Below, one piece after another: positions 13,629 to 41,623 of a stretch of DNA of 64,000 nt. This DNA comes from an uncultured Actinomycetes bacterium (GTDB lineage: Bacteria; Actinomycetota; Acidimicrobiia; Acidimicrobiales; Ilumatobacteraceae). The notes under the pieces are model-generated. The model saw only the letters and a program-made list of their open reading frames with translations. It was not told where the DNA came from and searched no databases. Position 1 is the stretch's first letter. Every line of letters starts with the position of its first letter. The position numbers were made by a program, and so were the translations under genes. The stretch is taken from the NCBI GenBank assembly GCA_903872155.1, contig CAIQJP010000093.1, forward strand, positions 1 to 64,000, given 5' to 3'.

Positions 13629-14090
13629 TTAGGAAGCTGTTCCTCTCACTGAGGCCATCAAAACTTCGTTTCTTGACACCACAAAGCACATCACCTGTCG
13701 ATCGCTTTTTGATTGCCAGGTCGTGACGCTTGGGTACAGGTACGTGAAGTACAAGTTCGATTGAGCCAATTCAACACCTACGTAGTCGGCAAAGGCTCCA
13801 ACACATTTCTGTTCAGCGAAGACTTCGAGAGTTGCTGAACCTGGATAAGCATCGCCGACGTAATCGACCGAGAAATAGGCTTCGTGAGTATGTGGTTCGG
13901 TGCAGGGAACTAGATCAATATTAGTTGCTTCGGCCTTGAGTTCTTCTTTGGTGCAATCTCCAACTTTCAGTTCAAAGATTGAAGAATTGCCGCGCTTAAT
14001 CACATTTCCTGATTCATCTCGCGTAAGTTTGTCGCCTGAACACGATGCGATGAAGGAGAGTGACATAAAGAGGATGGCGATCTTTTTCAT
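13629..14090 (-). CDS. Septum-formation-type lipoprotein
   Basis: This 153-residue lipoprotein starts at ATG 14090, preceded by GAAAGAAG. A TTG 18 bases earlier is in frame but not needed. The signal peptide MKKIAILFMSLSFIASC ends in an IASC lipobox at about 14-17, so the mature protein is anchored on the outer face of the membrane. The rest matches the Septum_form pattern: LKVGDCTKEE, LVPCTEPHTHEAYF, YPGSATLEVFAEQKCVGAF and W plus SDRQVMCFV. The paired Cys probably form disulfides. It lies 25 bases after the giant gene and is the last gene of the eCIS operon, so it may help fix the machine or stalks to the envelope. Confidence 0.8.
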   Translation of the reverse strand: MKKIAILFMSLSFIASCSGDKLTRDESGNVIKRGNSSIFELKVGDCTKEELKAEATNIDLVPCTEPHTHEAYFSVDYVGDAYPGSATLEVFAEQKCVGAFADYVGVELAQSNLYFTYLYPSVTTWQSKSDRQVMCFVVSRNEVLMASVRGTAS

Positions 14091-14115
14091 AAGTGAAACT
14101 TCTTTCAATTAACTT

Positions 14116-17100
14116 CTATGAGATAGTGACAGTTTGGGTTGACTGGATCACCGTAACTGTTGCTGATTTGGTAGAACCTGATGAGTACGTCGCTACGAAA
14201 CTGTAAGTGCCGTAAGGAACGTTAGAAATTGCGCATGTTGTTGTTCCTGTACATGTGTAACTGGTTCCGGAAATTGACACCGTGACCGTGCTGTATGTGG
14301 CGACTGTCGTCGATGTTGTTGCTGTCATTGCTGGAAAGTTGATAGTTAAATTAGATATTGGCGTCATGTAAACGGTCAATGTGACCGGATAACCCTGGTA
14401 TCCAACTGTTGCTGTCGCAGAACGATAGCCAGTTGCAGAAATTGTAATGTTTCTATTGGTTTTTGTTGAAGGAGTAATTGCGCAATTCCCGGCGCATATT
14501 GTTGAACTCGCAGCAACGCCGACTACATCAGCAGTTACCAAAGCGCCCGTTCGAGAATCGTAAATATTGAAATAGAGAGGTGCATTAGTCGGACGCATAG
14601 CGATCGTCACAGATGTTGGACCTGATGAACTTATAGTTACCGTCGTATATGCGGGCTCGTAATTTAGTAAAGTTGCTGAGATTGGTAGTGGCCCGACTGC
14701 GAGACCAGTTCCAGAACAAACGCCAGAGGCTGTTGTTACAGCAGAGCAGTTTGTGACCGTGACTCCTGAAAGCAGGTTTGAAGTAGTTGCATCCACGACA
14801 GTGACATTTAGGGTGTTGGTGGTGGCAACGGCAGCAGGAATCGTTGACAATATTACTTTGGCGTATCCACCACTCGAAGCGGTAGGGGTGACGTTGACGT
14901 AAGTATCGTTATACAGACCACTAGTTGAATGAATCTTGAATGAAGTTGGAATAAGTGAAAGTCCACTGCAGGTGTAATTCAATCCAGCCGGCGTACAAGA
15001 GCCGGAAGGTGCGATTGTGAACGACGCATCTGTGATACTCACGGCTGAACTATTAAAGATACTCATCGTAAAATCACTCGCAGTGGGCGCAGCGCTGACT
15101 GATCGGACAATAATCCTGACTGATGTAGAAGAGCCGCTCGTCATAGAAACAGTGGCAAAACCATACTCGCCAGCTTTGCCCGCGGACACTAAATACTGAC
15201 CAGCAGCCAGACCTGTCTTAGTGCAAACACTTGAAGATACTGAGCAAGTCGAGTCATTAACTGTGACAGTGGGGGAATCAACGAGATTGTTATTTTGATC
15301 TACAACGGTCACTGTGAGTGTTCCTGGAGCACTAGGTGCAGCCGGAGCGGCACTGAGCACAACGCTCACTGGGCCTGTACCGGAATAGGCAGATATGTAC
15401 TGTGGAACATATTCCGTCCCCTTTGAAACTTTGAGTGCAATCGATGAACTCGTCAATCCACTGCACGTGTAGGGGTTTGTACCAGTGCACGATCCTGACC
15501 AACTTAAACCGAAATTAACTGCTGCGCCACTCAAAGTCGCACCCGATGTGTCAAGAACATTGACAATGATTGATTTGGCCTTGGGCCGCATCGTAATGGT
15601 GGCCGAAGTTCCGCTAAGTGAGGAAATGGCAACATTTGCGTAACTGGTTTCGTAATCGCTTGATGCACTTGAAGCCGTAACGGTGATTTGTCCCAAAGCG
15701 ACATTGTTGAAGGTGCAATCTCCGGTGGTGGTAACGCATTGCACAAGGTTAGGTCCATCGACTTTTATCGAATCTGTAATCGGTGATCCTGTTTCAGCGT
15801 TTTTCAACGTGACGGTGAGCGAGCCAGGAAGAGGATCTTTGACAAGAATGATCTTTCCCAAATTCTGAGAAGTAGATGCCAACCATGGGTAAATTGTTAT
15901 ATAACCCTTGGAATAACCCGAAGTTTTGGATGCAGTCAATGTGACAGCTGTCCTCGGCATATTGCTACAAGTACTTAACCCGTCGGTGCCCGTAGTTGTG
16001 CACGAACCCGAGCTGCCAACAACATTCGCATCACTAATCGGGACATCGTTATCATCTATCACTTTTATAACTATTTTAGAAACGATCGGTCGCATTGTGA
16101 TCGTGACTGATGAAGACCCTGATGGATTGATCGTCACATTTGAGTATGCTTTCTCAAACTGTTGTAAGGCCCCTGAAGGTGATTCTGCCTCAACGTTGTA
16201 GTTACCTGTCGGGAGAGAATCTAGAGAGCACTTCCCATCTGTGTCTGTCAAACCGTTGGCGTTCGTCGAACTGGCACACAGATTGACCTTTATTCCCGGA
16301 ATCGGCATACCATCAACTGAGTTCAAGACTGTGACCGTCAGATCGTCGGTGGACAACTTTGACGTGAGGACTACGGTTGCACCATTTTCCGCCAATTCTG
16401 GCCAAGTGGGAGTGACATTTATATATGCGTCAATAAAGGTGGGTTTGGTCACCTTGATATCAATTGATCGCAGAGGAACATTGTTACATGCATATTCTCC
16501 GGGACTGCCTGCCACATCAACACAGCTTCCACTATTACCTGACAAAGTGATCAATGCATTGGATACTCCTTCAAAATCGCGTGATCCATCAAGAACATTC
16601 AAAGTGAATGAAGTTCTCGAAGGACGCATAGAAATTATGACATCAGTATTTCGTAACGAAATGATCGATGCTGTCGCGTAGGTATCTTCGTAACCCAATT
16701 TGGTTGCTTTCAAGGTGAATTGTCCCGCTTCTTGATTCAACCCCGTACATATGCCGTTTGTATCTGTTTTATGGTTAGATGTCTGTGCATTACAAACAGT
16801 TGTACCATCCCGCGTAATTGCTACTCCTTGAATTTCTTCACCAGTAATACTGTCCAACACAGTGATGTCCAAAGTATTGGTGTCGGAAGGAATCATCGAT
16901 ATTGATAAACGGGTCACTGGCCCGCCAGTGACGTCAACTGCGACGAATGCGTCTTCGTATCCAACCTTTGATGCGACGAAGTTGGTTGAAGTTAACTGAA
17001 GGCCTGTAAAAGTGCATGGGTTAGTACGGCACTCGTCTTTTCCAGTTGCTGATGGATTGAAGCTGACTTCCGAAAGAACCAAGCCGCTGAGTGCATCCAT

Positions 17101-20100
17101 TGCCGTGATCTGCACAGAACCTGTGGTGCTTCCTAATGCAACAGTTGTTGTGACGGTGCGTCCGCTCTCAATAGTTTCGGCAGCTTCCAACATGTCGTAT
17201 CCATCGTGAGTGATGCGGAACGTGTGTTCACCACTACTTAGGTCGCGAATTGTGCATTTACCTTTCGAATCAGTTGTCGCGGCTGTCACGCATGATCTAC
17301 CGCTCGTCATATCCGTCACTGTCGCTCCGGCCAAACCACTTCCAGTTCCGTCTCCACCGACGCTGAATTCGATATTTCCCGATCCAGAGTCGCCGAGAGA
17401 TAATTGCTTGCTAAAAACACCATTTGATCCAAAATCAGGTACGACAACTTCTTGTTTCGAATTAAAACCGTTCGGAGCACTGATCGTTCCGTTGTAGACA
17501 CCCGGCGGGATATCTGAAAAATTCGCAACGCCATTGCTATCTGTTTGATCACTCTGTGAATTCAACAAATAACCGTCTGAAATAGTTACTTTTGCGTTAA
17601 CGACCGGCACAGGAGTGGCGTCGCCAGTTTTGACAGTTATCTGAACATCGCCTGGTTTGACGATCAGGTTCGTAAGACCCAGAACGAAGGTTCGAGACAA
17701 TTCTGTGACAGAAACTTCGGGGGCGACAGGAACAATGTAGGTGAACGAATTTGTGAAAACTGTGTGAGCAGCAAGATCCCATTGATCTTGACCGCTAGTT
17801 TTAGATACAAACGCAAGACCGGTTGCCAATTCAGGCAAACTCAAAATTGGAACGTCAGTAGTGTCGCGAGCGATAGTGAATTGTGAACCTTGAGATAACG
17901 CGGCTACTGAAATGACCTTTGCATTGTCAGAATTAAAGTGAGAATCCGAAAAACCCGACACGTCAACGTAGTCGTTTTCGGCGAGAATTGGTGAACCTGA
18001 ATAAGTAAATGTCAAAGTTTTTTGTTCTTGATCCCGAGTCACCGCTGATATAGCCGTCTTCTCCTGTGCGCTCACAGTGCCAGAGTCTTCAATCACAATT
18101 GAATAATCACCTTCTGTCACACCAGCGAATGAAGCCACACGTTGACCACCTATGATCTCGGTTGAAGTTTGATGGTAAACGATGTTGTCCTTGATCAGAG
18201 CTACATCAACTTCTAAAGGTGTTGAAGGGCCAAAGGCTGAAGCAGGTATTCCAGCAATCGGAACAGCGATAAAAGAACCGCGTATTCCCAAATACACCGA
18301 GAATCGAGTTGTCGATCCTCGATCTATGTTTACATCAAAATATTGGTTAGCGTAACGCGAAGGTATGTGCGAATCAGAAATTTCGACTGAATAAGTTCCA
18401 CTGATAAGTCCCGAGAAATTGACCTGACCATCTCCTTCAGTTGTTTGACTGTACGCAGTGTCACCGGTTCTTTCAATCGTTACTTTGATGTCAGAGGCGC
18501 CGCTGCCTATTGGATTTCGCACATTTAGTTCAAGTGAGCCGGGAAGAGCAATCAGAGGAATGTTAAATGCTGAGTTAGGTACATTTACCGGGCCATTAAA
18601 TCGGGAAAACCCTGTTGAAATCGTCTGCACAGTCCACGGACCCGGAGCCAGATTGCTGAAACTGTAATACCCATCACTATCACTGATTGTGCTTTCTGAT
18701 TTTCCGCCAGCATCAGTGATGACGATCACCGCACCTTCAATTCTGCAAGTGGCATTGCAACTTTGGTTATCTACGTAACCTGCGAGTGACGCCAATTTCG
18801 GAGGGAGAATGAGAGTTGCACCGACATCATTCCCTGGCGTTACGGAAATTTTCGTCGACACAGAAGCGTAGTCAGATGCAATTTCGTTTAGCGCTGTCGC
18901 TCTAATGGTGAGCAAACCTTGCGGTAAGCCAATAATTGTGCACGAATTTACCTTAGGAATTGCTTTGGGTTTTGTTTCGCAAAACAAGGTGTCGCTGACT
19001 TCGTTCTTATCGTTTACATATTCAGCTCTAACATCGAAGAGCGGTTCGTTGTTTATGTTGATGAACGTAAAGGTGGCCTTACCGTTAATCGGGGTAGCGA
19101 TCAATGTAATGGCCGATCCTCCTGCGCCGACGCTGATACTTCCATACGCAGGTCTGTAATCCAGTTTCTGCGACCTGATTTGCATAATTCCAAATGGCAA
19201 ATCTGGCGGAGTGCAAACACCATTAACAGTTTCACAAATGTGCTCCGCACCACTTTCGTCGGTCGCTGTGATCGTCGCGCCAGATATAGGGTTTCCCACG
19301 ATGTCGAGCAAGGTAACTTCCAGCGATCCATTAGCCGCACCAAGAGTTGCTGACACAGCAATCGTTTGGCCGCCAATAACTGAGGCCGAGATTGTCGTCG
19401 AACTCAGCCCGGTAGCTGTCGCTTTAAATGTGTAGAGGCCGGCTGCGTAATTTTCAATCACGCAGATTCCAGTTTCGGAAGTTTCACACAAGATGCTTGG
19501 GTCATTGTTGTCAACTACTGAAGTAGACGACGTACTTGACGTCGAAGTTGTTGTGTCAAGATCAGGTGCGAGTCGAACCACCGCTCCATCAAGTGGACCA
19601 TTTGGTCCTCGTAGATAGATATTGAGGTTTCCACGCAAACTACGTCTCACGACATTTTCTTTTGAATTCACTCCTTGAACAATGGTGACATTTTGATCGA
19701 CTTTTGCGAAATCTAAGTTCGCGTCCAACACGAGATTCCAATTTCCGATTTCAATATTGGAAAATTGCGCCTTTCCATCTACTGTGATGATCGGACCTAT
19801 CGTTGTTACATCTCCACTAGAGGACGTCCGAGTCAGGGTGATGGCTTGGTCGTTTATGACGTCACCGGTGTCTTTTGACAATGAAATAGTTACTGATCCC
19901 AATCCAAGTTCAATAACAAGAGGATCATTTTGGGGTAAATCTAGTTTCTTTGAGGGATAGATCGTAAAGGTTTCTGAATCGACGCTTCCGACTGAATTTT
20001 TGGTAGCACGAACTGACCAACAAGTATTTGCTGACTGCGTACATGGGGTTGGAACGGTATCGGAATAATTGGTAGGAGTTGTATATGAAGTCGGGGTCAA

Positions 20101-23100
20101 ATTCGGAAAAGAGTAATAACCGTTTTGATCAGTGGACGTATTGACTGTTTCGAATACTCGGCCATCCTTTCCGATTCGGCGAGCTTCTACCTTGACATCT
20201 TTTTCAGCTCGATCGCCAACGGTGACGTATCCAGTAAGAGAACCGGAACTTGGTGAGAAATAGATTGATCGAACTTTTGTCTCATTACTCACAAGTGTGA
20301 GAGATGGATTTGCCTTGGCCAGCACGCCATCTGGCATGGATCCATTTCCCAAAGCACTATTACAAGCGTTATCAGAATTTGAATCTAAGAAAGTCTTTTT
20401 AGGGTCGTCACCGTTTATTGAAGCTGGCAAATTACTAAGACCGATTTCATTGATCATCGCAACACAAGCGTCGAATGCGATAGATGAAGCCTTATAACCT
20501 AAGCGGAAACTTCCAAGGGCCTTTGAGATTCCTAGCGTTGCTGCGTTAGTCCATTTATTCGCGTTACTGGAACTCGGACTGCTGGTTGTGCTCGTGACAT
20601 TGGTTGGTGTGACACGGTAGTAGACCGCGAAATTCTTTGATTCAACTGCTTCATAGTTTCCCGTCTCGAGATTGAGATACCGCACTTCTCCGGTAACCGT
20701 GGAAGGCGATTGCATCTTGAGGTCGACGTTGATTTTCGCTCCGAGCGCACCCACGACTGTTCGAGAAATAGGCGTGTAGTTATCGTTAGTTGTTTCAATT
20801 GTGTATGTCTTCGAATCAAGAACTTGAAGAAAGCTGTACTCGCCGTTGTCATTACTCACTGCAGTGCAAGTGCTGACGCAGTTGTTTTCAGCAGGAGATA
20901 GAGATACTTGAATGCCCTGAATAGGTGATCCAGTGGTGTCAGTGACCTGTCCGATCAAGTCTCCCTTTGGTTCAAGTAAAACTTCCGTCAACTCTTCTTT
21001 GGTCACGATGTTCTCGACAGTTTGATACTTCTTTGAAGTTGTCTGAACAATTTTCGGTGAATAACCGGTGGCGGTGAACACGAGGTAGTAAGAACCTGCA
21101 GTGAGATTGTCAATGAGAATTGTTGCCTCATTGGTGTTTTCAGTGTTCTCGAGGGTGTATCGACAGTCTGAATCTGTTGCTCCTAAAGCGTCCTCTACTA
21201 GGCCACAATCGTCGGACGCGCGATAGAAAATTTGTACTTTCACTTCGGACGAGTCGGTTTCGTTGTAATCCTTGACGAGGTGAAAGCTGAGATAATTGTT
21301 CTTACTTGTATCAGTTAGTTCTTTCAATATGGCATTTAGAGTCTGTGTGGTGCCAGGCCCGATGGTGACTTCAGAAATTTGGTCTTCAAATCCGAGCGCT
21401 TCAAATGTGACGATGTAAGTTCCAGGCGCGATATTTTCAAAGAGGTATTGACCGTTGTTGGTTCCATCATTCGTTACAAGGTTCGTGCTTTTATAGGTAT
21501 TGGCATTATTTTTGATCGAAATTGCAACTCCCGACGGGTCAATTTTTTGGCCATTTTTACTGAAGACATTTACAGTTCCTGTGACCTGGCCTGTAGAACG
21601 TTTCAAGTCAATGATGCGAGGCGCATTGTAGGTAGAAAGTTCGATTTCTTCAGTGACGGTTTCGTAGCCTTCAGCGGAATAGGTCAACGTATATGTTCGT
21701 CCTACGGGAAGATCATAAAGGGTGAAAGTCCCAACCAGTTTTGATTCGCCGATTGAATCTTTATCAAGCAAAGTTGAAGTAGTTCGCGTCGTGACTCCGT
21801 CAGTGGCCGTGACTGTAAAGACCTTGTTTTCATCAAAATATGCCGAAGTCACCGTTCCTTCAAGCGCGGTGACGTTTGGTGACAACGTGAGCGACACGTC
21901 TTTGTTTTGGCCTCCCGCATCAAGATTGACAATTGTGCTCGCTAGGCCTCGACCGTTAATTTGCGCATCGACCACCCAAGTGCCTGGTGTTGACAAATTA
22001 GCGAAGGAAAATTGTCCCAAATGTTCCTCATCATTAGGCGTCGTCGTTTGATAGGTGATATTCCCATCGGTTAATGTGACACTGACACCTCCGATGAATT
22101 TACCGGTTTCATCGACGGTGACTCCACTGATCAAGCCATCTCCTACTTCTAAGGCGACTTCAAGCGCCACAGGTTCGCCGTTGGGCTGCACGATTATTTT
22201 TTTGGTTTTGTGGCCAGTCTTGGAAAATGTGAACTCAAAAAATTTTGACGCATCAAGTCCAGTTACAGAGAATGATCCCTTGTCGTCGGTAGTCGTGCTG
22301 AGGTTTGCAACATTTGGATTAATTGATCCAGTAGATGAAGAGGCTTTGCCCGTTCCTTCAACGTCACCAATACTTACTTCACTCCATTTGACGACAACAC
22401 CGCTCCCATCGGGGATAGCAGTTACTTTGCCGGACACGTCAATCAGAGTTGGTAGCTCTAAGCCTCCGCTTGATCCAGAGTTTGATTGACTTCCAGTGCC
22501 TTGGTCGGTCTGTCCAGTAGCGCTCGCAGTTGAATCTTTTGTCACGGGATTAACAGCGCGTACAATCGCCAAGGTAGCGCCTGCCCACACAAGCACAACG
22601 CACAAGAGGCCCATGACCGACTTTATATTTCGGCCAACAATCGGAATATGCCTGATATTGCCGCGGCTATAAATTGGAGCACCGGCTCCTTCGCCAATGA
22701 TTGAATACCAGTGTTCTTTCTGCTTGCCGATGAAGAATGGTCGCACCCGAAGTCGACCCTTAATTCGGACCATCTCGCCAGCACGTATTTCGATTTCTTG
22801 TTGAAGAAGTTTTACTTTTGAATCGTTGTCATCAGATTCCGTCCGCATACGAATGAAATGCGTCTGGTCGTCATGATTTCGTAAAACAACTCGGACTTTT
22901 CCTCGGATTCGTCGACGAATCGAAGGCGGGGATAGATGCATCGCTATTGAACGAGTACGTTGAACTTTTAGGAAAACTTCGCCATTTCCAAGCACTGCAC
23001 CATTTGAACGATCAAGTACTTCGATCAAAATTGGGTGATCGCCAGGTGGCATACCGGCGGGCACCATCATCGGTAGTTCGACTTGAGTGCTGAGGTGGGC

Positions 23101-31474: not shown

Positions 31475-31475
31475 G

Positions 31476-31874
31476 TCAGTCCTCTTCAGGCGGGATTGTG
31501 TAGAACGGATAAACGAGGTTGCGTCGATCGTTGGTCGATCGAACGATGTAAGAAATTTGAATAGTGACTGCGCCGTCGATATCGGATGGCTCCACTAGAA
31601 CCGAATCAATTTCGACGCGCGGTTCCCACATATGGAGGGCTTCTTGAACGTACATTTCCATTAAGCCCATGGTGCTGGTTTCAATGGGCTCAAACATGAG
31701 TTCCCAAATGCGACAGCCGAAAGCTGGGCGAAAAGGACGTTCGCCCGGTGCTGTCGATAACACGACGGCCATTGATCGCTCAAGTTCTTCAATACCTTCA
31801 ATAAGAGTGAATGAACCACTCTCGTTGATGCGCATGGGAAAGGGGAAGCCCTTACCGATGAATTCATCTGACAT
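31476..31874 (-). CDS. GPW/gp25-like baseplate protein
   Basis: A 132-residue gp25 homologue, the sheath-initiating baseplate component (Afp9/Pvc9-like). The core EELERSMAVVLSTAPGERPF followed by RPAFGCRIWELMFEP holds the EPR-type core of the family. The C-terminal strands (VEIDSVLVEPSDIDGAVTI, VRSTNDRRNLVYPF) complete the fold. It has a strong ribosome site (31877-31888) and follows the only sizeable gap in the structural part of the operon (66 bases), so its translation is independent of the spike gene. Confidence 0.92.
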   Translation of the reverse strand: MSDEFIGKGFPFPMRINESGSFTLIEGIEELERSMAVVLSTAPGERPFRPAFGCRIWELMFEPIETSTMGLMEMYVQEALHMWEPRVEIDSVLVEPSDIDGAVTIQISYIVRSTNDRRNLVYPFYTIPPEED

Positions 31875-31876
31875 AG

Positions 31877-33731: not shown

Positions 33732-33732
33732 G

Positions 33733-34386
33733 TCATCCCTCCAACTCTGGAATCATCAGGACACGGCCAGGATCGAGTGCGAGTGGATCATCAATTCCAT
33801 TCGCATTAGCGATAGTGCGCCACTGAGAAGAGTCTCCATACAACTCATCGGCGACGGTGTCGAGGTATTGGCCTGCTTCAAGTCGGCGCACTTGTCCAGG
33901 GTTTGGAGTTCCCGAGGTTGGGTTTTGTGGGGGAGTCACCCCTTCGTCCATGAACTGACGAAACGACATACTGACTTCGGCGCGCAACGGAACACCTTTT
34001 GAAGTGAAGTAGGTGTACTTCAAATTGAAGCTGGTGATGACAGCTTTGAATGAACGCAACTTGCCCCAATGGAACTGCACCCACGGTGGACGCTTGATGT
34101 TGCGATCTTCTTTCGTGCCCTTGACCTTCTTGTCGGTAACAGTGAGCTTGTATAGCTTGTCGGTGATATCGGTAATGGATTTGCCAGTTTCGGTTGAATC
34201 AAAAATTGCGGTCAATTTGAACTCAACAGAATTGCCACTATCGAAGGTCAATTGAGGTGCATTGCTACCTGGTGAGTTGTTTGATTTCCAGTCAGTCGAT
34301 TTCGAAAATTCCAAATCGCTCGGGTTGAACATGAATGGAATTTTTGTCTTGGTTTCAGACATGAGGTAAGCCTTTTGAATACTCAT
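33733..34386 (-). CDS. LysM-containing CIS tube/baseplate adaptor (Afp7-like)
   Basis: A 217-residue protein with the CIS_tube domain in the first 150 residues (FMFNPSDLEFSKSTDW, PPWVQFHWGKLRSFKAVIT, LKYTYFTSKGVPLRAEVSMS) and a C-terminal LysM domain at about 165-213 (AGQYLDTVADELYGDSSQW, NGIDDPLALDPGRVLMIPE). In eCIS this protein joins the spike to the first tube ring, while the LysM tail contacts the baseplate rather than peptidoglycan. It follows the 1311-residue gene by 3 bases and precedes the VgrG gene by one base, the conserved order of eCIS clusters. Confidence 0.92.
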   Translation of the reverse strand: MSIQKAYLMSETKTKIPFMFNPSDLEFSKSTDWKSNNSPGSNAPQLTFDSGNSVEFKLTAIFDSTETGKSITDITDKLYKLTVTDKKVKGTKEDRNIKRPPWVQFHWGKLRSFKAVITSFNLKYTYFTSKGVPLRAEVSMSFRQFMDEGVTPPQNPTSGTPNPGQVRRLEAGQYLDTVADELYGDSSQWRTIANANGIDDPLALDPGRVLMIPELEG

Positions 34387-34389
34387 TGA

Positions 34390-37300
34390 CTACCACCTTC
34401 CTCCGGCGACTCCACGTCGCTCGAGTTCTTGACGGAGACGATCATCAACAATGCGATTGATCCAATCCATGAGGTCAAGGAGTTGACTAGTTGTTACTTG
34501 GTTTGAGCCTGATTCCGAATCGTCAGCTGGCGATAAAACTTGGCTCAGGATTGAGACCGGACCAGGCGCGGCCTTCACGGTTGTTGACGGACTCCGTTGA
34601 ATGATTGACGAACCGCCTGAACGAGAGATTTGCCCAGGTGATCGCTGGGCACGGATGAGTCCACTTGATGAGGTTCCGCTGACCTGGCGGTGAACGACTT
34701 GGTTGGGCAAACTCTGGCCAGATTCAATCATTCGCACGAGGGCGTCAGCAGAAATGGTGCCGTCTTCACTCGGTGCGAATTGGATGCCTGAGGCCTGCCG
34801 TTGAATTTTCAACGAACGTCGTCCCTCTCGACGAACCGATGGTGAAGGAAGTAGCGCGGCTGACTTTGATGCGACTGATCTCGATATCTCGTTATTGTTC
34901 GATGAAACCGATGGTGATGTTGATACAACCGTCGGCGTATTTGGTAGCGCGCTCAAAGCTTCGGAAGGAATTCGCATTCCGGGAGTGACGTTGGGAGATA
35001 CTGGCAAATCGTTGAGAGGACTCGATAGTCGTTGAGTGGGAACGCTGCGAGAAACCAAACGATGGAGCACACCTCGAGAAGCGATTGATCCGCCGCGCTC
35101 AACAATTTCTTGTCGTGAACGAGCGGCGTCAATACTTTGCTGTGTTGATGACCGTCTCTCAAGCGTCGCGGAGGTTGTTGTTGGCGCCTTTGCTGATGTT
35201 GATGTGGAAGTTGATGATGACGTAGAAGTTGAAGTAGGTGTCGATGAAAGTGCGGGTGACGAAGTTGAGGCGACGTTTGCAGTTGATCGTTGAGTAGTTC
35301 TCTTTGAGCTTTTCGCTCGTGTTGATGAACCGTCGGCTGGTATTTGCGAAGAATGGGCAACAACTGATCGCATGACAGTTCCGTTGGCGACTGAAGCTGT
35401 TTCGGACATTGCACGAGATGCTCTCTCGATCGAATCAGCCGAACTGCGAGTTGTTGACGACGAGCCAGTGTCAGTAGCCGCATCATCGACATTCACACTA
35501 CGCATGATCGCCCAATGCGGTTGATCGTCGATCGTCGTGATGTGTGAAGAGGTGTCGGATCGATCGATCGGAGAAGCTGCTGGACGAACGGTGTCGTCGT
35601 CTTGAGGTTCACGTGAAGGACTGCGGGAGATCATGTCACGGGAAACGGCTGTGACCGAAGGTTGAGCTTGATCAAGCGTGGCTGCAGGAGCGAAGTCCTC
35701 CCCAGTGGTTCGACTGAGTCGATCTAGGAAGTTTTGTGCGACGTTTGCACCGGCGCCGGTTAGTGGCGTCGCCACGGTCTCCCGATCTGAAGTTCTTCGA
35801 GAGCCTGTCGTGCTTGTTGAAGAGGGTGATCGATGGATTGAAGGCGATGTTGTCGTGCTCGCGGAGGCCGAGGCTCTCGGTCGTTGTGCCCGAGTCGGAG
35901 CAATCGCTTGATCAACGTCACCATGAGTTTGTCGCCGCAAAATTGCTTTTGCTAAGGATCCTGCGAATTGAATACCTCCGCTGGCTCCGGGCGTAATGCT
36001 CGACATATGAGAACGGGTTTGACGAGCAACTGACATCACGCGGGCAGTCGACGGATTGCCTTGTGAAGCGCTTCGCAATGCCTGGCTCGTGCGATTGTTC
36101 TTTTGCGATCGCAGATCATGAGTAATCGATCGGCGATTCAGGCCAAAAGACCTGTGTGACAACGGAGCGTCTAAGGCGAACTGTTGACGGACGATTGAGC
36201 CTGGCTTGCTGTCGAGAGAGTGAGCCTTTGGCTGAGGCAAACGTAATGAGCGACGGGCAACTAAATCAGATTGACGGGGAATGGAATGGTTGACAGCCGA
36301 CCACAGATTGACAAAAGAAGGCCGTTGTGTGGAAAGTGATGCGGCGCTCACCACTTGGTCGCGATTCGCGATCTTCCTGCCTTGAACCGATGCTCTTTGG
36401 CCTCGCGTTGCGCTTCGGTGGATCGCCGATTGTGAAGATTTTGCGGAGCGACGAGAAATGCTTGGTGAAGTATTTCGGGTTGATGAGCGACCGCTATTCC
36501 TGTTTGCCGACCTACTTGTATTCCGATTTGCCGAAGTGGTAATCGCTTGGCCTTCTTGACTCTTCTGGGTGATTTTTCGATCAACTTGAGTTGCAGGTTT
36601 GTGCGAAGTTGCTTGATCTGGCGAAACTGTAGGAGTTCGTTGCGTTTGAGCGGTGTCGGTTCGGTTGCGCTGTGCTCGTCGAGTGAGTGGGCGTTGTCTT
36701 TCGCTTGGTGAAGAAATCTGAGTCACTGAAGATTCGCGGTTATGACGAACTGCTGCATTCATCGATGAAGCGAGGCTGAGAATCGAGCCTGATACTGGTG
36801 ATCGACGAGCGATATCTCCGGGCGTTCCGAGTGGTGCACCAGAGGGATTGGCAAGTGCTGCAACTCGTCGGAAGAGTGAGTCTTGGGTGGACGTCATCAT
36901 GGGTGGCGGCGCAAGTGATGTTTGTTCCGAAGGTAACCCCACTACCTGTCGCCAACCAGCTGATCGCGGAATACTGACCGACCGCACGCGGCGACGAACT
37001 TGCGCTGGTGCTGTGGTGTCGACCCCGTTTCCAATAACGACCGAGTTGATGCTTGATGAAGTCGAGGCAGCGAAACGTGGAGATGCTTGATCTGCAATTG
37101 TCTGGGGCGACATTGTTGTCGACGAAAAAAGCGATGTCGTTGATGGTGTCGTTGACGGTGTCGTTGACGGTGTCGTTGTCGATGAAGTTGGAGAAGATGC
37201 GGGAATTCGAGCAATTGATGGGGTTGATTCCGCTTTTCTAGAAACGACATCAGGTGATGAATCTCGAGAGGGAAACGAGGTCCAGTTCGGGCCAACGGGT

Positions 37301-38325
37301 GGTGAGATTCGTGAATTGGACACTTGTCGCGAGGCGGTAGTCGGTTGTGTCGTGGTCGAAATTAACCTCGGCGTTGTCGGTGTTAACGACGAAGATGATG
37401 TTGTTTGTGATGCGGTACGTCTGGAGACCCGTGGCCTCGTTCGCGTCAATGCGCTTGCTTGAGGTGTTGTCGAAGCGGATGATGTCATGTTCAAACGACG
37501 AGGAGGCTCATACATCATTGAGAGTGGAATTGGATGACCGGGTATGACGGCGGGTTGGCGAGTTGAGATGGCGCGACGATGAATAGAAGAACGATCGATC
37601 GATTGGCGCGAACTCACGCGTGGTAGCGACAAACGATGAATCGCCGAAGTTGCGTCTGTGGTATCTGGTTCGATGCGAGGGTTCTGAAAACTTGGCGATG
37701 ATGAGAGCAAAGAACGCGCCACCAAGACGGATTCATATCTAGGCGCGAGTGGCGTTGGACCATCTCGGTCGGTTCGACTTCCGTTCCTCGTCGGACTGTT
37801 GGTTGAACGGGTGCGGGAAGGACGAGCAGTTGGTCGTTGCGGTTGAGTCGTCACACGAACCAGAGGTGCTGACATTGGACCAATATGGGCTTCGTTTCGG
37901 CTGGGTTGACGGCGAATCGGATGCAAACGTCGGGCGATCGAAGATGGTCCGGTCTGGATCCCCGAACGGCTTCGCCCACGTGCATGGGCAGCCATAGGAA
38001 GACCTCGAGGTTGAACCTGACGTACGACGCGATTTTTCATTCGTGATTGTCGTAACGCAATGATGTCGCGATCTCGGTAGGGGTCGAGATCGTCGGCGCG
38101 AGTCGGTAGGGCCGGCAACAGCCACATGGGGAACCGAACCGAAGAATCGCTGGAGATTGATCGTCGAATCGAAGTCGAGCGACCAAATGAATTAGCCATG
38201 ACCTGTGAATTGGTCGCGATTCGACCGATCGTCGCCTTGCGTTGACGGGCGACAGGTGTCGGTCGCACAATGCGCCGAAGCGGTTTGGCGGGAGATTCCT
38301 GTTGGAAAACGTTACTCATCGTCAC
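34390..38325 (-). CDS. Very long disordered Arg/Ser/Thr-rich eCIS protein (1311 residues)
   Basis: I recognise no enzymatic or structural domain. Almost the whole chain is Ser, Thr, Arg, Pro, Ala and Gln-rich and predicted disordered, strongly basic and without Cys in the parts I read. Short motifs of a hydrophobic residue, any residue, Arg and Ser/Arg/Gln recur throughout (IHRSPSS, IQRSPST, IQRQASG, AILRRQ, TVMRSVV, IMRSVN). Only the last 35 residues look folded (LLDLMDWINRIVDDRLRQEL, a helix). Tandem TPST units occur near residue 390. The start is GTG 38325 overlapping the tube-2 stop, or ATG 38319. Its place between tube 2 and the LysM adaptor argues for a particle component: tape-measure substitute, lumen cargo or linker. 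DUF4157-type eCIS proteins share such VQR-like motifs, but no HExxH-like site is seen here. Confidence 0.75.
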   Translation of the reverse strand: MTMSNVFQQESPAKPLRRIVRPTPVARQRKATIGRIATNSQVMANSFGRSTSIRRSISSDSSVRFPMWLLPALPTRADDLDPYRDRDIIALRQSRMKNRVVRQVQPRGLPMAAHARGRSRSGIQTGPSSIARRLHPIRRQPSRNEAHIGPMSAPLVRVTTQPQRPTARPSRTRSTNSPTRNGSRTDRDGPTPLAPRYESVLVARSLLSSSPSFQNPRIEPDTTDATSAIHRLSLPRVSSRQSIDRSSIHRRAISTRQPAVIPGHPIPLSMMYEPPRRLNMTSSASTTPQASALTRTRPRVSRRTASQTTSSSSLTPTTPRLISTTTQPTTASRQVSNSRISPPVGPNWTSFPSRDSSPDVVSRKAESTPSIARIPASSPTSSTTTPSTTPSTTPSTTSLFSSTTMSPQTIADQASPRFAASTSSSINSVVIGNGVDTTAPAQVRRRVRSVSIPRSAGWRQVVGLPSEQTSLAPPPMMTSTQDSLFRRVAALANPSGAPLGTPGDIARRSPVSGSILSLASSMNAAVRHNRESSVTQISSPSERQRPLTRRAQRNRTDTAQTQRTPTVSPDQATSHKPATQVDRKITQKSQEGQAITTSANRNTSRSANRNSGRSSTRNTSPSISRRSAKSSQSAIHRSATRGQRASVQGRKIANRDQVVSAASLSTQRPSFVNLWSAVNHSIPRQSDLVARRSLRLPQPKAHSLDSKPGSIVRQQFALDAPLSHRSFGLNRRSITHDLRSQKNNRTSQALRSASQGNPSTARVMSVARQTRSHMSSITPGASGGIQFAGSLAKAILRRQTHGDVDQAIAPTRAQRPRASASASTTTSPSIHRSPSSTSTTGSRRTSDRETVATPLTGAGANVAQNFLDRLSRTTGEDFAPAATLDQAQPSVTAVSRDMISRSPSREPQDDDTVRPAASPIDRSDTSSHITTIDDQPHWAIMRSVNVDDAATDTGSSSTTRSSADSIERASRAMSETASVANGTVMRSVVAHSSQIPADGSSTRAKSSKRTTQRSTANVASTSSPALSSTPTSTSTSSSTSTSTSAKAPTTTSATLERRSSTQQSIDAARSRQEIVERGGSIASRGVLHRLVSRSVPTQRLSSPLNDLPVSPNVTPGMRIPSEALSALPNTPTVVSTSPSVSSNNNEISRSVASKSAALLPSPSVRREGRRSLKIQRQASGIQFAPSEDGTISADALVRMIESGQSLPNQVVHRQVSGTSSSGLIRAQRSPGQISRSGGSSIIQRSPSTTVKAAPGPVSILSQVLSPADDSESGSNQVTTSQLLDLMDWINRIVDDRLRQELERRGVAGGRW
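37139..37174. repeat. Three 12-base tandem units encoding TPST
   Basis: Three consecutive 12-base units (the first differs by one base) lie inside the 1311-residue gene and encode TPSTTPSTTPST on the minus strand. This is a likely site of length variation between strains. Confidence 0.8.
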
Positions 38326-38882
38326 TTCTTCTTCTTAGGAGCAGCGACTTTTTTCTTAGCCTTAATGGACGGCTTCTTGCTCGATCCAGCCGGAACACCC
38401 ATATTTGATGAAACCAAACCATGATGGGCGAGGGTGATTTCTTCGACGAGAAATTCATCGGTTTCAATGGAGAGGTCTGGACCCTTCCAAGAAACGGGAA
38501 TCGCATCGGTCAATATCCAGGTGCGTAACCTTTTTCCTTTGGCGCTCATCAATGTGATCGCGACGTTTTGGCGAGCCAACGTTGCTTTTCCTCGTTTTGA
38601 ACCCAACTCAAAGCGACTTCCACTGGCTTCGTTGAACCAGTTATACAGACCATTGTCATACGTCATTCCACGTCTCAATGTCACATCGTCGAACGTGAAG
38701 CGCCCGGGGAGCTTGTGCACAAAGCCGTTTTCTCCGCCTTCGGTCACTTCAAAAATCTCGACTTTTCCGCCGAGGCCTTTGACTTCTCGAAAAGAGCCAA
38801 GAAGTTTGCCGTCAACTTCAACGATGAATGTCGCTGAAGTGGGTCCTTCGTTATAAAAGGAGTTAAAGGGTGAAATACCCAT
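38322..38882 (-). CDS. Tail tube protein, gp19 family, with Lys-rich tail
   Basis: A 186-residue tube protein of the T4 gp19 family (Afp5-like second tube). Family features are FIVEVDGKLLGSFREVKGLG, KLPGRFTFDDVTLRRGMTYD and VSWKGPDLSIETDEFLVEEI followed by TLAHHGL. Compared with the tube protein at 39600-40034 it has about 40 extra residues, including a basic tail ending in a run of Lys (KPSIKAKKKVAAPKKKK). It probably forms the first tube ring that sits on the LysM adaptor. The basic tail could contact the lumen, cargo or baseplate; that is inference. It lies two bases after the DUF6760-like stop. Confidence 0.92.
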   Translation of the reverse strand: MGISPFNSFYNEGPTSATFIVEVDGKLLGSFREVKGLGGKVEIFEVTEGGENGFVHKLPGRFTFDDVTLRRGMTYDNGLYNWFNEASGSRFELGSKRGKATLARQNVAITLMSAKGKRLRTWILTDAIPVSWKGPDLSIETDEFLVEEITLAHHGLVSSNMGVPAGSSKKPSIKAKKKVAAPKKKK

Positions 38883-38884
38883 GA

Positions 38885-39061
38885 TTAAGCCATGATCTTT
38901 TTGGCTTCATCGAGCGCTCGACGATTGAGCGCAGCGACTTTTTCTACAAGTCGCACTCGATCGGAATGCTCTAAATCTAAGAGACGATCAAGATCCCAAT
39001 GGATGTGGTACGCGAGATAAATCACTTCGTCCCACAACGCGTCTTCGGGATAAATCTCCAT
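38885..39061 (-). CDS. 58-residue DUF6760-like tail protein
   Basis: A short gene of 58 residues beginning MEIYPEDALWDEVIYLAYHI. Its ATG overlaps the TGA of the preceding gene by one base (TGATG). The helical sequence with WDEVIYLAYHIHWDLDRLLD followed by LEHSDRVRLVEKVAALNRR matches the small DUF6760-type protein commonly encoded between the assembly chaperone and the second tube in eCIS and phage-tail-like clusters. Function is unproven; a tube assembly helper is plausible. Its conserved position and unbroken coupling to both neighbours make it a real gene despite its size. Confidence 0.85.
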   Translation of the reverse strand: MEIYPEDALWDEVIYLAYHIHWDLDRLLDLEHSDRVRLVEKVAALNRRALDEAKKIMA

Positions 39062-39600
39062 CAGGAGTCCTGATTGACCTCCTCGATAACAGCCCCTCCA
39101 CGACGACGGCCAGTGATGATGATTTCTTCATCGTCATCATCATCTTCATAGTCGTCATCGGTGCTGTCGTCGAGATCATCGTCATCTTCGTACTCGTCGT
39201 CATCTTCGTCAGTATCGTCGTCATCGGCTGACTGAGCGCGAGACCGAGCAGCGGTGGCTTTTTCGGCTTCATTTGCTTCCTTGAGGAAGGCTCGAACATC
39301 TGACGTGCTGCCGAAGTTCACGACGCCGTAGAGATCTTGCAAAAACGCAAGATCGGCGGCGAAGAGATTTTCGATCTCTCGAGGGGTCACTGCTGACAAA
39401 CTGCCAAGTTCAGTGACCACCCTCGAGAGAACGATAATAGTTAAATACGGATCATCTGCACCCTGCACCCGTGGATCGCGAAGCGGTTCGATCTCGTCAC
39501 GCGCCGTAGCAAGGCGCATAACGCCCCGGCGATGAACGGTCCCGTCCGACCCGAGATAACCGCGGGGGAGAGTAAAGGAAAATTCCGTAGTAAGAGACAT
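39061..39600 (-). CDS. gp41-like tail assembly chaperone with acidic tail
   Basis: A 179-residue protein. The first 100 residues match the Mu gp41-like tail assembly family: EFSFTLPRGYLGSDGTVHRR, VMRLATARDEIEPL, DPYLTIIVLSRVVTELGSL and VTPREIENLFAADLAFLQD. From about residue 124 a tract of almost only Asp and Glu runs for some 40 residues, followed by a basic GRRRGG patch. The acidic tail is not a standard part of the family. It might keep basic partners (the Arg-rich 1311-residue protein, or the Lys-tailed tube) soluble before assembly. It overlaps both neighbours by single-base TGATG junctions. Confidence 0.82.
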   Translation of the reverse strand: MSLTTEFSFTLPRGYLGSDGTVHRRGVMRLATARDEIEPLRDPRVQGADDPYLTIIVLSRVVTELGSLSAVTPREIENLFAADLAFLQDLYGVVNFGSTSDVRAFLKEANEAEKATAARSRAQSADDDDTDEDDDEYEDDDDLDDSTDDDYEDDDDDEEIIITGRRRGGAVIEEVNQDS

Positions 39601-40034
39601 CAGGCCTTGAAGAGTCCTTCGTGGCTGATCGTCAATTCTTCAATCATGACGTCATCAGTGCCGGCGTCCAAGTCTGAAGCACTCCACTTCGAGGGCCAAC
39701 CGGCTTCGAAGTTCCAGCGACCAACTTCAGTTCCAGCATTGTCATAAATGACGATGGAACCGTTGGTGCGCTCGACGGCGCCTTCGAGGACTTTGGTGTG
39801 CCAGTCAATGATGGCGCTGTCAGCTGACAAACCACGCTTCAGCACGATGTCGTCGTACTTGGTGCGGCCTGGACGCTTACGGATGATGATCTTGCCAGCC
39901 ACGGTGTCTTGGTATTCGACCACTTCGGTCGAGTAGCTCAAGCCCGAGCAGCCTGTGAATCGAGCCATCTCAACACCCTCAAGTTCGAGGGCGAATTGAG
40001 ACCCGAGAAATTCGAGGTCATGTTCATTTGCCAT
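39600..40034 (-). CDS. Major tail tube protein, gp19 family
   Basis: A 144-residue gp19-type tube protein (Afp1-like). Features include FLGSQFALELEGVEMARFTG followed by CSGLSYSTEVVEYQD, KRPGRTKYDDIVLKRGLSAD and WSASDLDAGTDDVMIEELTI, ending ISHEGLFKA. It should stack as hexameric rings inside the sheath. It starts 32 bases after the sheath stop, where GAACC and AAGG sequences leave room for its own ribosome site, as expected for a highly expressed subunit. Its TGA overlaps the ATG of the assembly chaperone. Confidence 0.95.
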   Translation of the reverse strand: MANEHDLEFLGSQFALELEGVEMARFTGCSGLSYSTEVVEYQDTVAGKIIIRKRPGRTKYDDIVLKRGLSADSAIIDWHTKVLEGAVERTNGSIVIYDNAGTEVGRWNFEAGWPSKWSASDLDAGTDDVMIEELTISHEGLFKA

Positions 40035-40066
40035 TGTTCAGGTTCCTTTCGTAGAAGCTGTGTAGA

Positions 40067-41623
40067 TCAGGCTGCTTGACGCAGTTGGCTGATGCGGAAG
40101 ATAACGAATTCAGCAGGCTTGACCGGCGAAATGCCGACTTCAACTACTACCTTGCCTTGGTCGATCGAGTCAGGTGGGTTGGTTTCCGAGTCGCACTTGA
40201 CGAAGAACGCCTGATCGGCGGTAACACCGAACAAAGCGCCATCGCGCCACAATCCGCGAAGGAATGCTGAAATGGTGCGCTTCAAACCTTCCCACAACTT
40301 CTGATCGTTCGGTTCGAAAACTGCGAACTGGGTGCCTTCCATGATTGCGGTTTCGATCATGTTGAACAAACGACGCACGTTGATGTAGGTCCAATCGGTG
40401 TTGGATGACAAGGTGCGAGCACCCCACACGCGGATTCCGCGAGTTCCGAACGGACGAATGCAGTTGATGCCGATCGGGTTGAGCAATGACTGCTCACCCT
40501 TGGTGATGTCGATTTCAGTTGACAAAACGCCACGAACAACTTCGTTGGCCGGAGCCTTCCAAACACCACGGGTGTCATCAACGCGACTCCAGATACCGGC
40601 CACGTGACCAGACGGCGGAACCAAAATGGTTGCGTCAGCGGGGCTGGTGCTCACGGGGTTGTCAACGCGAATCCATGGGTAGTAGAACGCCGCGAAAGCT
40701 GAGTCGTACATGGCGACATCTGAACGCCATTCTTTGACCTGCTGGGGCGACATGGCCGGAGGCGCATCCAAGATGGCCATGCGGTTGGCCTGGCCTTCGC
40801 AATGTGAAATGAGCGCAGTTTGTACTGCTTTCCACATGCCGAGGTCGACAGATCCGTCAGCCTTGGTCGCAGCCGTGATGAGGTCGGGGACCATCACCAT
40901 GGTGACTTCGTCGGCAATGACCAAGCCGTTGATGCCAGTGCGGTCTGATTCGCTGCCAGCAAAGTGCTTGGGCTTGACTTCAACCGGTACGGCCGGAGCA
41001 GGAGTTACTGCGAACAAGCCGGGGCGAAGGCCGGCAATGGTGATGTCCGCAAGGGTCTTGAGATCAACTTTGGTCTCGACCTTGACGCGCTTCGATGCTT
41101 TATTCACCGTGGCGGCGATATCGGACAACGAGACATTGTCGTAACGCTCGGTCTCGATGCCACCTTCGGTGACGACGAAGTTGAAGTTAGGAGCCTTGCC
41201 GTCTTCAGCCGGGTCTCCATTTTCGATAGCGATTGCCATTCCGTCGGACGGTCCAATGCTGGTGACTTCAAGTGGCAAACCAAGCGCACGGTCAACCGCG
41301 GGAAGCGCACGCTGACCAGGCTGATCGGACGGTGCTTGGTGAGCAACACGCACGATGTAGGCCATGCCGCCACCGTTATTGAAGAATCCGTAGACCGAGT
41401 GGGGGAGCATCGCTCCGGCCAAAAAGCCGCCGTAAGCAGCTTCGTACTGGGTCCAGCTGGTCACTAAACGGGGCTTCAAGCCCTGCGGGTCGGTGGGGTC
41501 GTCCTTAGGAAAGTCGGCAGTGAAGCCAACAAAGGCTGCGACTGCGGTCAATCCGGCCGACAAGGTCGCTGAACCTGAGGGCACCTCTTCGACATACACA
41601 CCTGGGGTTAGATAAGAAGGCAC
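40067..41623 (-). CDS. Contractile tail sheath protein
   Basis: This 518-residue sheath protein is the first gene of the eCIS operon. The N-terminus PSYLTPGVYVEEVPSGSATL followed by SAGLTAVAAFVGF is the canonical sheath opening. The C-terminal core carries NPIGINCIRPFGTRGIRVWG, TDWTYINVRRLFNMIETAI, LWEGLKRTISAFLRGLWRDG and a last beta-strand PAEFVIFRISQL used in inter-subunit weaving. Only one sheath gene is present, whereas Afp-type systems have three. The start is GTG 41623 with AAAGGA five bases upstream. It is divergent from phoH, with 322 bases of regulatory space. Confidence 0.96.
   Translation of the reverse strand: MPSYLTPGVYVEEVPSGSATLSAGLTAVAAFVGFTADFPKDDPTDPQGLKPRLVTSWTQYEAAYGGFLAGAMLPHSVYGFFNNGGGMAYIVRVAHQAPSDQPGQRALPAVDRALGLPLEVTSIGPSDGMAIAIENGDPAEDGKAPNFNFVVTEGGIETERYDNVSLSDIAATVNKASKRVKVETKVDLKTLADITIAGLRPGLFAVTPAPAVPVEVKPKHFAGSESDRTGINGLVIADEVTMVMVPDLITAATKADGSVDLGMWKAVQTALISHCEGQANRMAILDAPPAMSPQQVKEWRSDVAMYDSAFAAFYYPWIRVDNPVSTSPADATILVPPSGHVAGIWSRVDDTRGVWKAPANEVVRGVLSTEIDITKGEQSLLNPIGINCIRPFGTRGIRVWGARTLSSNTDWTYINVRRLFNMIETAIMEGTQFAVFEPNDQKLWEGLKRTISAFLRGLWRDGALFGVTADQAFFVKCDSETNPPDSIDQGKVVVEVGISPVKPAEFVIFRISQLRQAA

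What the first reader, a model, noticed from the sequence alone, without database searches (positions are those of the whole stretch)
13629..41623. A complete-looking contractile injection operon fused to a large membrane-protein module
Sheath, two tubes, assembly chaperone, DUF6760-like protein, LysM adaptor, VgrG spike, gp25, baseplate J, tail protein I and DUF4255 cap are in the standard eCIS order. All are on one strand with mostly overlapping or near-overlapping genes. The same chain of ATGA overlaps continues from the DUF4255 cap into three membrane proteins totalling 4592 residues. Classical eCIS particles (Afp, PVC) are released and have no membrane anchor. Streptomyces-type CIS are reported as cytoplasmic with a membrane partner (CisA). 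Three anchors, one of 3053 residues, would make this an elaborate envelope-tethered variant in a lineage that I infer to be Acidimicrobiia.
Basis: partly seen in the sequence, partly recalled or inferred. Interest (0 to 1): 0.85.

Follow-up and report, generated by a model that had tools for sequence, protein, structure and literature searches.

The report
Contractile injector with giant membrane trio
A bacterial nano-syringe gene cluster carries three related membrane proteins, one of them giant, that many related bacteria also keep near their syringe genes and that most likely hold and trigger the syringe at the cell's own membrane.

Summary
A one-strand contractile injection system (CIS) runs by 4-base overlaps from the cap gene into three single-pass membrane proteins (707, 832, 3053 aa). 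Its nearest solved relatives are from the Streptomyces coelicolor cytoplasmic CIS. The three large proteins share their N-domain with a Streptomyces CIS-locus protein that I identify, by name, place and architecture, with the Sco4256-4258 "effector" family. The trio is widespread: 33 of 35 genomes searched have three members in a tight group, 30 of 35 on the same contig within 25 kb of baseplate J. In 20 of 20 distinct trio-type loci where both are visible, the cap gene lies within 67 bases of a member. In three Deinococcus CIS plasmids the family member is kinase-FHA-[this domain]-TM-outer part and the baseplate wedge is FHA-TailI, which puts the N-domain in the cytosol and suggests baseplate docking. 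An ATPase and eCIS-core proteins lie elsewhere in the genome, in the same 3 of 24 genus genomes as the sheath. Best reading: an intracellular CIS with a membrane dock and sensor; dock versus cargo is untested.

The parts
40067..41623 (-). tail sheath (CIS)
   Evidence: Pfam Phage_sheath_1 4e-19 and 1C 4e-20; PDB 8bky 1e-145
39600..40034 (-). inner tube protein 1
   Evidence: Phage_T4_gp19 4e-35
39061..39600 (-). acidic chaperone-like protein, conserved slot
   Evidence: no Pfam match above cut-off; a homologue in 45 of 45 named loci whose stretch includes a sheath
38885..39061 (-). DUF6760 small protein
   Evidence: PF20546 5e-8
38322..38882 (-). inner tube protein 2
   Evidence: Phage_T4_gp19 8e-35
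34390..38325 (-). 1311-aa Ser/Arg/Thr-rich, probably disordered protein; C-terminal motif resembles that of proteins which carry an eCIS_core domain in some relatives
   Evidence: no Pfam match; composition and C-termini; eCIS_core in G012 (same slot) and in G014 (neighbouring slot)
33733..34386 (-). CIS_tube + LysM-like adaptor
   Evidence: CIS_tube 2e-28; LysM 0.012, below cut-off
31941..33731 (-). VgrG-like spike
   Evidence: Phage_base_V 5e-28, Phage_GPD 2e-11
31476..31874 (-). gp25 baseplate wedge
   Evidence: GPW_gp25 6e-23
29519..31474 (-). baseplate J
   Evidence: Baseplate_J 2e-14; PDB 9gtp 4e-157
29001..29522 (-). Tail_P2_I baseplate wedge
   Evidence: Tail_P2_I 4e-5
28570..29004 (-). 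zinc-ribbon, C-terminally membrane-anchored protein in the CisA slot (144 aa, TM 122-140)
   Evidence: DZR 3e-7; TM; model hits at or beside the post-TailI slot in other loci; 75 of 78 named loci
27889..28566 (-). Pvc16_N / DUF4255 cap
   Evidence: Pvc16_N 1e-17; PDB 9gts 5e-24
25769..27892 (-). membrane protein anc1, 707 aa: 2 PapD/MSP-like Ig domains, TM 212-230, 5 carboxypeptidase-regulatory repeats
23274..25772 (-). membrane protein anc2, 832 aa: same plan, TM 216-234, 6 repeats
14116..23277 (-). membrane protein anc3, 3053 aa: same plan, TM at about 213-239 (scans with different cut-offs place it differently), at least 24 repeats
13629..14108 (-). probable lipoprotein (lipobox IASC read by eye), Septum_form domain; relatives lie near sheath or cap in other clusters
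   Evidence: Septum_form 4e-9
12428..12853 (-). DUF4280 protein (PAAR-like by recall); beside the sheath in some relatives
   Evidence: DUF4280 9e-34; 7 of 18 named loci with sheath and at least 400 bases upstream; several unnamed loci

Best explanation
This is an intracellular CIS of the Streptomyces-like lineage with an elaborate membrane module. The tail assembles in the cytoplasm. Two kinds of membrane protein meet it: a tail-anchored zinc-ribbon protein in the CisA slot, and three paralogues whose two Ig-like domains lie in the cytosol and whose 5, 6 and at least 24 repeat domains lie outside the membrane. The cytosolic domains most likely dock the particle, probably at its baseplate (Tail I), and the outer arrays sense a signal, wall state or contact and license firing through the cell's own envelope. 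An ATPase and eCIS-core proteins (probable cargo) are encoded elsewhere in the genome. Shown here: homology of the N-domain, conserved grouping and linkage, the trio as separate sequence groups, co-occurrence. Inferred: topology in the window proteins, docking, sensing, firing direction.
For: Nearest solved sequences are S. coelicolor CIS baseplate J 9gtp (4e-157) and cap 9gts (5e-24) (the entries are those of the CisA paper). Profile A1 gives three matches in the host genome, the trio (13 of 18 first-look candidates were scored). An N-domain HMM from 13 window-type sequences, without Streptomyces or Deinococcus, finds the Streptomyces 'hydrolytic protein' near a CIS (2e-41; 2e-35 with the TM removed) and a Deinococcus kinase fusion (4e-26) among 2369 ORFs, nothing among the reversed ORFs. 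In the three Deinococcus CIS plasmids fetched, the family member is Pkinase-FHA-N-domain-TM-~880 aa, so what precedes the single TM is cytosolic, and Tail I there carries its own FHA domain. K+R is higher before than after the TM in 53, lower in 14, tied in 31 of 98. Grouping and linkage: tight trio in 33 of 35 genomes; same contig as baseplate J and within 25 kb in 30 of 35; cap within 67 bases of a member in 20 of 20 distinct trio-type loci where both are visible. anc1, anc2 and anc3 form separate groups in a 98-sequence tree. CisA, the membrane partner that has been studied, is bitopic with a cytosolic N-terminus and is needed for contraction (PMC12237407, abstract and sections 7 and 9).
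Against: Sco4256-4258 are reported as effectors: toxic in E. coli; their deletion empties the tube lumen in most particles and abolishes death under nisin (PMC10066040 section 11). 38 of 172 sheath-negative genomes in the family carry one or two short N-domain proteins, so the domain is not CIS-specific. A CIS locus of S. cadmiisoli has no N-domain protein in its 41.6-kb stretch. The S. coelicolor sequence itself was not fetched. The cap gene, not Tail I, is the constant neighbour of the trio, so docking might be at the other end. Group supports for anc1 (0.717) and anc2 (0.211, or 0.788 without one sequence) are modest. The window's own three TM flanks do not show a clear charge bias singly.
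Confidence: 0.58

Rival explanations
1. The trio are injected effectors: folded or threaded in the tube lumen, delivered by contraction and inserted in a membrane by their TM helix.
For: Sco4256-4258 deletion leaves about 85% of particles empty (73 counted) and removes CIS-dependent death; the proteins are toxic in E. coli (PMC10066040 section 11). Sco4256 was found in purified particles, as was Sco4242/CisA (PMC10020575 passages).
Against: Kinase-FHA on the N side of a single TM in Deinococcus; up to 3916 aa, at least 24 repeats in the window member; Sco4256 is in a table of S. coelicolor glycoproteins, classed membrane with one TM (PMC6593405 passages; the same table holds three proteins that its authors think intracellular), which points to an outside part; the host genome has two separate eCIS_core proteins, the usual cargo mark by recall. 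CisA is also toxic in E. coli.
Confidence: 0.22
2. The trio are cell-surface adhesins or receptors that recognise a neighbour and trigger outward firing at it, rather than a dock for self-directed firing.
For: Long Ig-type arrays beyond the TM; a giant member is kept in many actinobacteria.
Against: No ligand or target evidence; the cytosolic N-domain and the cap linkage are explained equally by a dock.
Confidence: 0.12
3. The trio are tail fibres of a released particle (eBAP-type baseplate-anchored fibres).
For: A 2026 catalogue links eBAP4 fibres with carboxypeptidase-regulatory and Ig domains and shows a Cellulomonas example (PMC12923769 passages).
Against: TM helix between N-domain and repeats in the trio; profile A1 gave 23 PDB matches at E up to 1, none named as a CIS protein; eBAP4 is defined there as the first 200 aa of the tCIS crown. 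The eBAP models themselves were not available to test.
Confidence: 0.05
4. Chance neighbours: the membrane genes merely sit beside the tail genes.
For: The module changes strand and side between lineages; in one genome (L140) it lies about 60 kb from baseplate J.
Against: It stays on the same contig within 25 kb in 30 of 35 genomes despite those changes; in the genus, tail and trio are present in the same 3 genomes.
Confidence: 0.03

Closest known systems
CISSc of Streptomyces coelicolor (cytoplasmic CIS; called type IId in print)
   Same: Baseplate J, cap and sheath are closest to its solved proteins; similar gene slots in other Streptomyces loci; Zn-ribbon membrane gene after Tail I; a membrane protein with PapD-like N-domain and one TM
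   Different: The CisA-slot protein lacks the 155-172 aa outer part; membrane proteins of 707-3053 aa with repeat arrays instead of about 450 aa; ATPase unlinked
Sco4256-4258 'CIS-associated effectors'
   Same: Three paralogues with similar N-terminus and a single TM; the Sco4256 N-domain was likened by authors to pilus chaperones, as the model here matches
   Different: Outer part is an array of carboxypeptidase-regulatory repeats, not ricin-type or lectin; same-strand run-on from the cap gene
Deinococcus CIS loci with FHA-kinase
   Same: Same N-domain and TM within the CIS locus
   Different: Kinase and FHA in front; one member seen; Tail I carries FHA; my Zn-ribbon model finds nothing in the three loci
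CisA (SCO4242)
   Same: Gene slot, zinc ribbon, TM
   Different: Window gene ends 4 residues after the TM; no outer domain
Thylakoid-anchored CIS and T6SS
   Same: Idea of a membrane-held CIS
   Different: Anchored by baseplate extension or trans-envelope complex (as the CisA paper describes); I saw no counterpart among the Pfam matches of this cluster

Membership tests
Contractile injection system, Streptomyces lineage | Sheath, tube, spike, gp25, baseplate J, Tail_P2_I, Pvc16 cap | tested here: met
   best PDB matches of sheath, baseplate J and cap are S. coelicolor CIS entries
Contractile injection system, Streptomyces lineage | AAA+ ATPase | tested here: met
   not in the cluster; homologue elsewhere in the genome (E 8e-92, 53% over its C-terminal half), beside an eCIS_core gene, in the same 3 of 24 genus genomes as the sheath
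Contractile injection system, Streptomyces lineage | Formal IId placement in the published tree | not tested
   no dbeCIS alignment on hand
Sco4256-4258 family | PapD-like N-domain followed by one TM, in a CIS locus | tested here: met
   the link of the Streptomyces hit to SCO4256 is by product name, place and architecture only
Sco4256-4258 family | Acts as effector | not testable with these tools
   -
CisA (applied to 28570-29004) | Slot after Tail I, Zn ribbon, TM | tested here: met
   no S. coelicolor CisA sequence was compared
CisA (applied to 28570-29004) | Conserved outer C-terminal domain | tested here: not met
   4 residues after the TM in the window; 0-31 in 72 of 73 named loci with a TM call, 130 in one (L108); 155-172 in the five Streptomyces and clade-B proteins measured
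CisA (applied to the three large proteins) | Zn ribbon | tested here: not met
   none among their Pfam matches
eBAP tail fibres | eBAP N-terminal domain | tested here: inconclusive
   no chain named as CIS among PDB matches of A1; eBAP profiles not available

The most novel reading that the evidence does not exclude
The protein family now called CIS effectors in Streptomyces is really the membrane dock and trigger of this whole CIS lineage. In Deinococcus it is an outright receptor kinase whose phosphorylation state sets binding to an FHA-bearing baseplate. In a large actinobacterial clade it became three dedicated subunits, one reaching perhaps 100 nm beyond the membrane, while CisA lost its outer domain because the trio took over outside sensing.
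Probability: 0.42. Interest if true: 0.86.

Novelty: new variant of a known kind. Interest (0 to 1): 0.72.

Why it matters
How a cytoplasmic CIS reaches a membrane and is told to fire is open; CisA is the one membrane partner I found studied. A conserved three-protein module near the tail genes in cultured genera such as Cellulomonas and Nocardioides, and a Deinococcus version with kinase and FHA parts, make the question testable. It also calls for re-examination of proteins that are in print as effectors. I found no description of the trio, within these limits: searches of CIS or eCIS terms with 'carboxypeptidase regulatory-like', Acidimicrobiia, 'hydrolytic protein', Deinococcus/kinase/FHA and Nocardioides returned no paper; Cellulomonas returned three, of which I looked into one, abstract and passages; SCO4256 returned three, of which I looked into two; a loose search with Ilumatobacter gave only a listing. 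Subscription papers, preprints and supplements were not searched.

Tried and rejected
Rejected: the large proteins as CisA homologues (no zinc ribbon among their matches). Rejected: the cluster as a remnant lacking ATPase or cargo (candidates for both found elsewhere in the genome). Considered and not supported: chance match of common Ig domains (no match in reversed ORFs; three matches in the host genome). Tail_P2_I gave no PDB match. The five non-CIS N-domain genes examined share a chromosomal neighbourhood; HemB (ALAD), GGDEF and PD40 genes were identified there in one of them, G033, and an aminotransferase in G040; no clue to CIS function. A promoter/terminator scan of 27000-42300 found no more sites than shuffles. 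The 1311-aa protein was not explained beyond its slot and ends. eBAP profiles could not be tested. Fold ties (PapD-type, MSP-type, ciliary and others) show a common fold, not a function; several long alignments there have rmsd over 8.

Limits: only up to 13 first-look candidates per genome were scored, so N-domain counts are lower bounds. Repeat counts come from a model iterated on the same proteins. Gene distances use ORFs from their first start codon. The pooled models were iterated on all loci, so only the models are independent tests. One search gave only a listing.


Full report
OBSERVATION. Pfam places sheath, two gp19-type tubes, CIS_tube, VgrG, gp25, baseplate J, Tail_P2_I and Pvc16_N and DUF6760. 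From the cap on, genes overlap by 4 bases into three membrane proteins of 707, 832 and 3053 aa. Each has about 212 residues, one TM helix, then carboxypeptidase-regulatory (Ig-type) repeats: 5, 6 and at least 24 at iE below 0.01.

LINEAGE. By sequence, the nearest solved proteins are baseplate J 9gtp (4e-157), cap 9gts (5e-24) and sheath 8bky (1e-145), entries deposited by the two S. coelicolor CIS papers (data availability passages). The host is a draft genome of 2.81 Mb in 165 contigs.

THE REST OF THE SYSTEM IS ELSEWHERE. The genome has a homologue of the Streptomyces CIS-locus ATP-binding protein (E 8e-92) on another contig, two genes downstream of an 831-aa eCIS_core protein, and a second eCIS_core protein (818 aa) on a third contig. 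Among 24 genomes of the genus, sheath, eCIS_core protein and ATPase each occur in exactly the same 3. The trio also occurs in those 3, among the 22 genus members of the family search. So the locus is not complete by itself, but the genome may be.

CISA SLOT. In two annotated Streptomyces loci a zinc ribbon domain-containing protein follows Tail I, directly in one and with a small gene between in the other. Published work puts CisA in that place and notes its Cys-rich, probably Zn-binding, segment before the TM (PMC10020575 section 11; PMC12237407 passages and sections 7 and 9). A model of six window-type Zn-ribbon proteins gave six hits in 2369 ORFs, E 3e-7 to 4e-3, five the gene after Tail I and one (S. 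cadmiisoli) the zinc-ribbon gene just beyond it; none in reversed ORFs. Scores for Streptomyces are weak (14-23 bits). Of 78 named loci with Tail I and room, 75 have this gene next. In 72 of 73 with a TM call it ends 0-31 residues after the TM (L108: 130); five Streptomyces and clade-B proteins have 155-172 residues there. The window lineage thus has a CisA-like protein without the outer domain.

THE THREE LARGE PROTEINS. A profile from 13 window-type N-domains, without Streptomyces, Deinococcus or clade B, gave 15 matches at 4e-26 or better among those 2369 ORFs: seven clade-B loci, five non-CIS genes, two Streptomyces-family loci (2e-41 and 1e-36, the first annotated 'hydrolytic protein') and one Deinococcus protein; one further match at 0.015; none reversed. 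It also finds a 989-aa hypothetical protein in a Pseudanabaena CIS plasmid (1.8e-13) and nothing in the S. cadmiisoli stretch. SCO4256 bears the product name 'putative hydrolytic protein' and is in a table of S. coelicolor glycoproteins, one TM, membrane (PMC6593405 passages). Sco4256-4258 are described as three single-TM proteins with similar N-termini, called effectors (PMC10066040 section 11); Sco4256's first domain was likened to pilus chaperones. The AlphaFold2 model of the window anc1 N-domain (pLDDT 95.7) is two Ig sandwiches plus a TM helix; PapD/FimC-type chaperones, MSP and HYDIN domains match single sandwiches at Z about 10. I did not fetch SCO4256 itself.

TOPOLOGY AND THE DEINOCOCCUS KEY. 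In CIS loci on three Deinococcus plasmids (three fetched of the five Deinococcus rows listed) the family member reads kinase (about 10-275), FHA (about 335-398), N-domain (from about 425), TM (677-719), about 880 residues; Tail I in the same loci reads FHA then Tail_P2_I. A kinase in front of the only TM places the N-domain in the cytosol. Charges agree across the family: of 98 proteins, 53 have more K+R before the TM, 14 fewer, 31 tied; mean net charge +1.7 before, -0.4 after. The window's own three are not clear cases singly (K+R before/after: anc1 4/4, anc2 2/3, anc3 4/2). FHA on both the membrane kinase and the baseplate wedge suggests phosphorylation-dependent docking; this is inference.

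SPREAD. In 200 genomes of the family, the sheath is in 28 and the N-domain in 64 (up to 13 candidates per genome scored, so a lower bound). Of 19 with a window-type sheath (68% identity or more), 17 have two or more N-domain proteins; the exceptions, G006 (none) and G090 (one), also lack baseplate J at E 1e-10, so their clusters are incomplete in the assembly or decayed. Among the matches listed, no sheath-negative genome has a member with an open frame of 1500 aa or more, but 38 of 172 have one or two short ones; the five examined lie in a shared chromosomal neighbourhood. I gave 36 of the 80 loci, chosen by me mostly for long flanks, to a whole-genome search; one was not held, and 35 of 35 genomes (the sister genome among them) had the N-domain. 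In 33 of 35 three members lie with N-domain starts spanning 4.6-5.6 kb. I then checked for 34 of the 35 whether that contig is the one with baseplate J: it is in 31. In 30 of these the trio lies within 25 kb; in L140 two full members and fragments of a third lie about 60 kb away. L138, L150 and L152 have trio and tail on different contigs; L109 has its members split over two contigs. Offsets put the trio downstream in Cellulomonas-type loci, where it is on the opposite strand, upstream in Nocardioides, and downstream on the same strand in the window.

ORTHOLOGY AND CAP. In a tree of 98 N-domains, anc3 (36 sequences) is a group with support 0.969, anc1 (18) 0.717, anc2 (29) 0.211 (0.788 without one sequence), anc1+anc2 0.93, and the Streptomyces, clade-B and non-CIS proteins together (15) 0.996 (I assigned the labels, partly by length and place). 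So the trio looks like three old subunits, not a local duplication. The cap gene lies within 67 bases of a trio member on the same strand in 15 of 15 unnamed or window loci and 10 of 10 named loci where both are visible; removing five duplicates gives 20 of 20 distinct loci; in further loci only one of the two is in the stretch. In ten clade-B and Streptomyces loci the distance is 0.3-3.9 kb, on opposite strands in seven.

MECHANISM. I favour an intracellular CIS with a membrane dock and sensor. The main rival, injected effector, rests on published deletion and toxicity data that I cannot set aside: an empty lumen in the triple mutant is hard to explain by a dock alone, unless the dock also controls loading. 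Size, TM topology, the kinase fusion, the glycoprotein listing and the separate eCIS_core proteins speak against plain cargo. Which end docks is open: the Deinococcus FHA pair points to Tail I, the constant cap linkage to the cap.

NOVELTY. CIS, CisA and the Sco4256 family are known. New here, as far as my searches reach, are the conserved trio with a giant member, the loss of the CisA outer domain in the trio clade, and the Deinococcus kinase/FHA pairing. Hence: new variant of a known kind.

Noticed in passing
34390-38325: 1311-aa Ser/Arg/Thr-rich protein between tube 2 and LysM; 1029-1530 aa in window-type relatives; in diverged relatives only the C-terminal end and short stretches align; slot homologue G012 and clade-B G014 carry an eCIS_core domain.
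   Followed up: partly
L195:8726-13936 (host contig C8) and L196:6498-9788 (C3): Two unlinked eCIS_core proteins, each followed by a 264-276 aa protein without Pfam match; one pair is followed by the CIS-type ATPase.
   Followed up: partly
L054, L206, L207: Deinococcus CIS plasmids encode a membrane FHA-kinase within the CIS locus and an FHA-TailI baseplate protein.
   Followed up: yes
L101, L102, L103, L104, L105: N-domain + TM protein of about 410 aa at a shared chromosomal place in genomes of the family without a sheath; HemB, GGDEF and PD40 neighbours identified in G033.
   Followed up: partly
L208:27719-30688: Pseudanabaena CIS plasmid encodes a 989-aa hypothetical protein with the N-domain (1.8e-13).
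   Followed up: no
L052:13752-16949: Streptomyces CIS locus has a 1065-aa PD40 propeller/DUF11 protein overlapping the cap gene; a PD40 protein also neighbours a non-CIS N-domain gene.
   Followed up: no
12838-13617: Plus-strand gene (weak YbjN match, 0.15) set between lipoprotein and DUF4280; the same in sister genome G056.
   Followed up: no
anc3, 14116-23277: The part after the TM has 42 Cys, the N-domain none, as expected if only that part is outside the cytosol.
   Followed up: no
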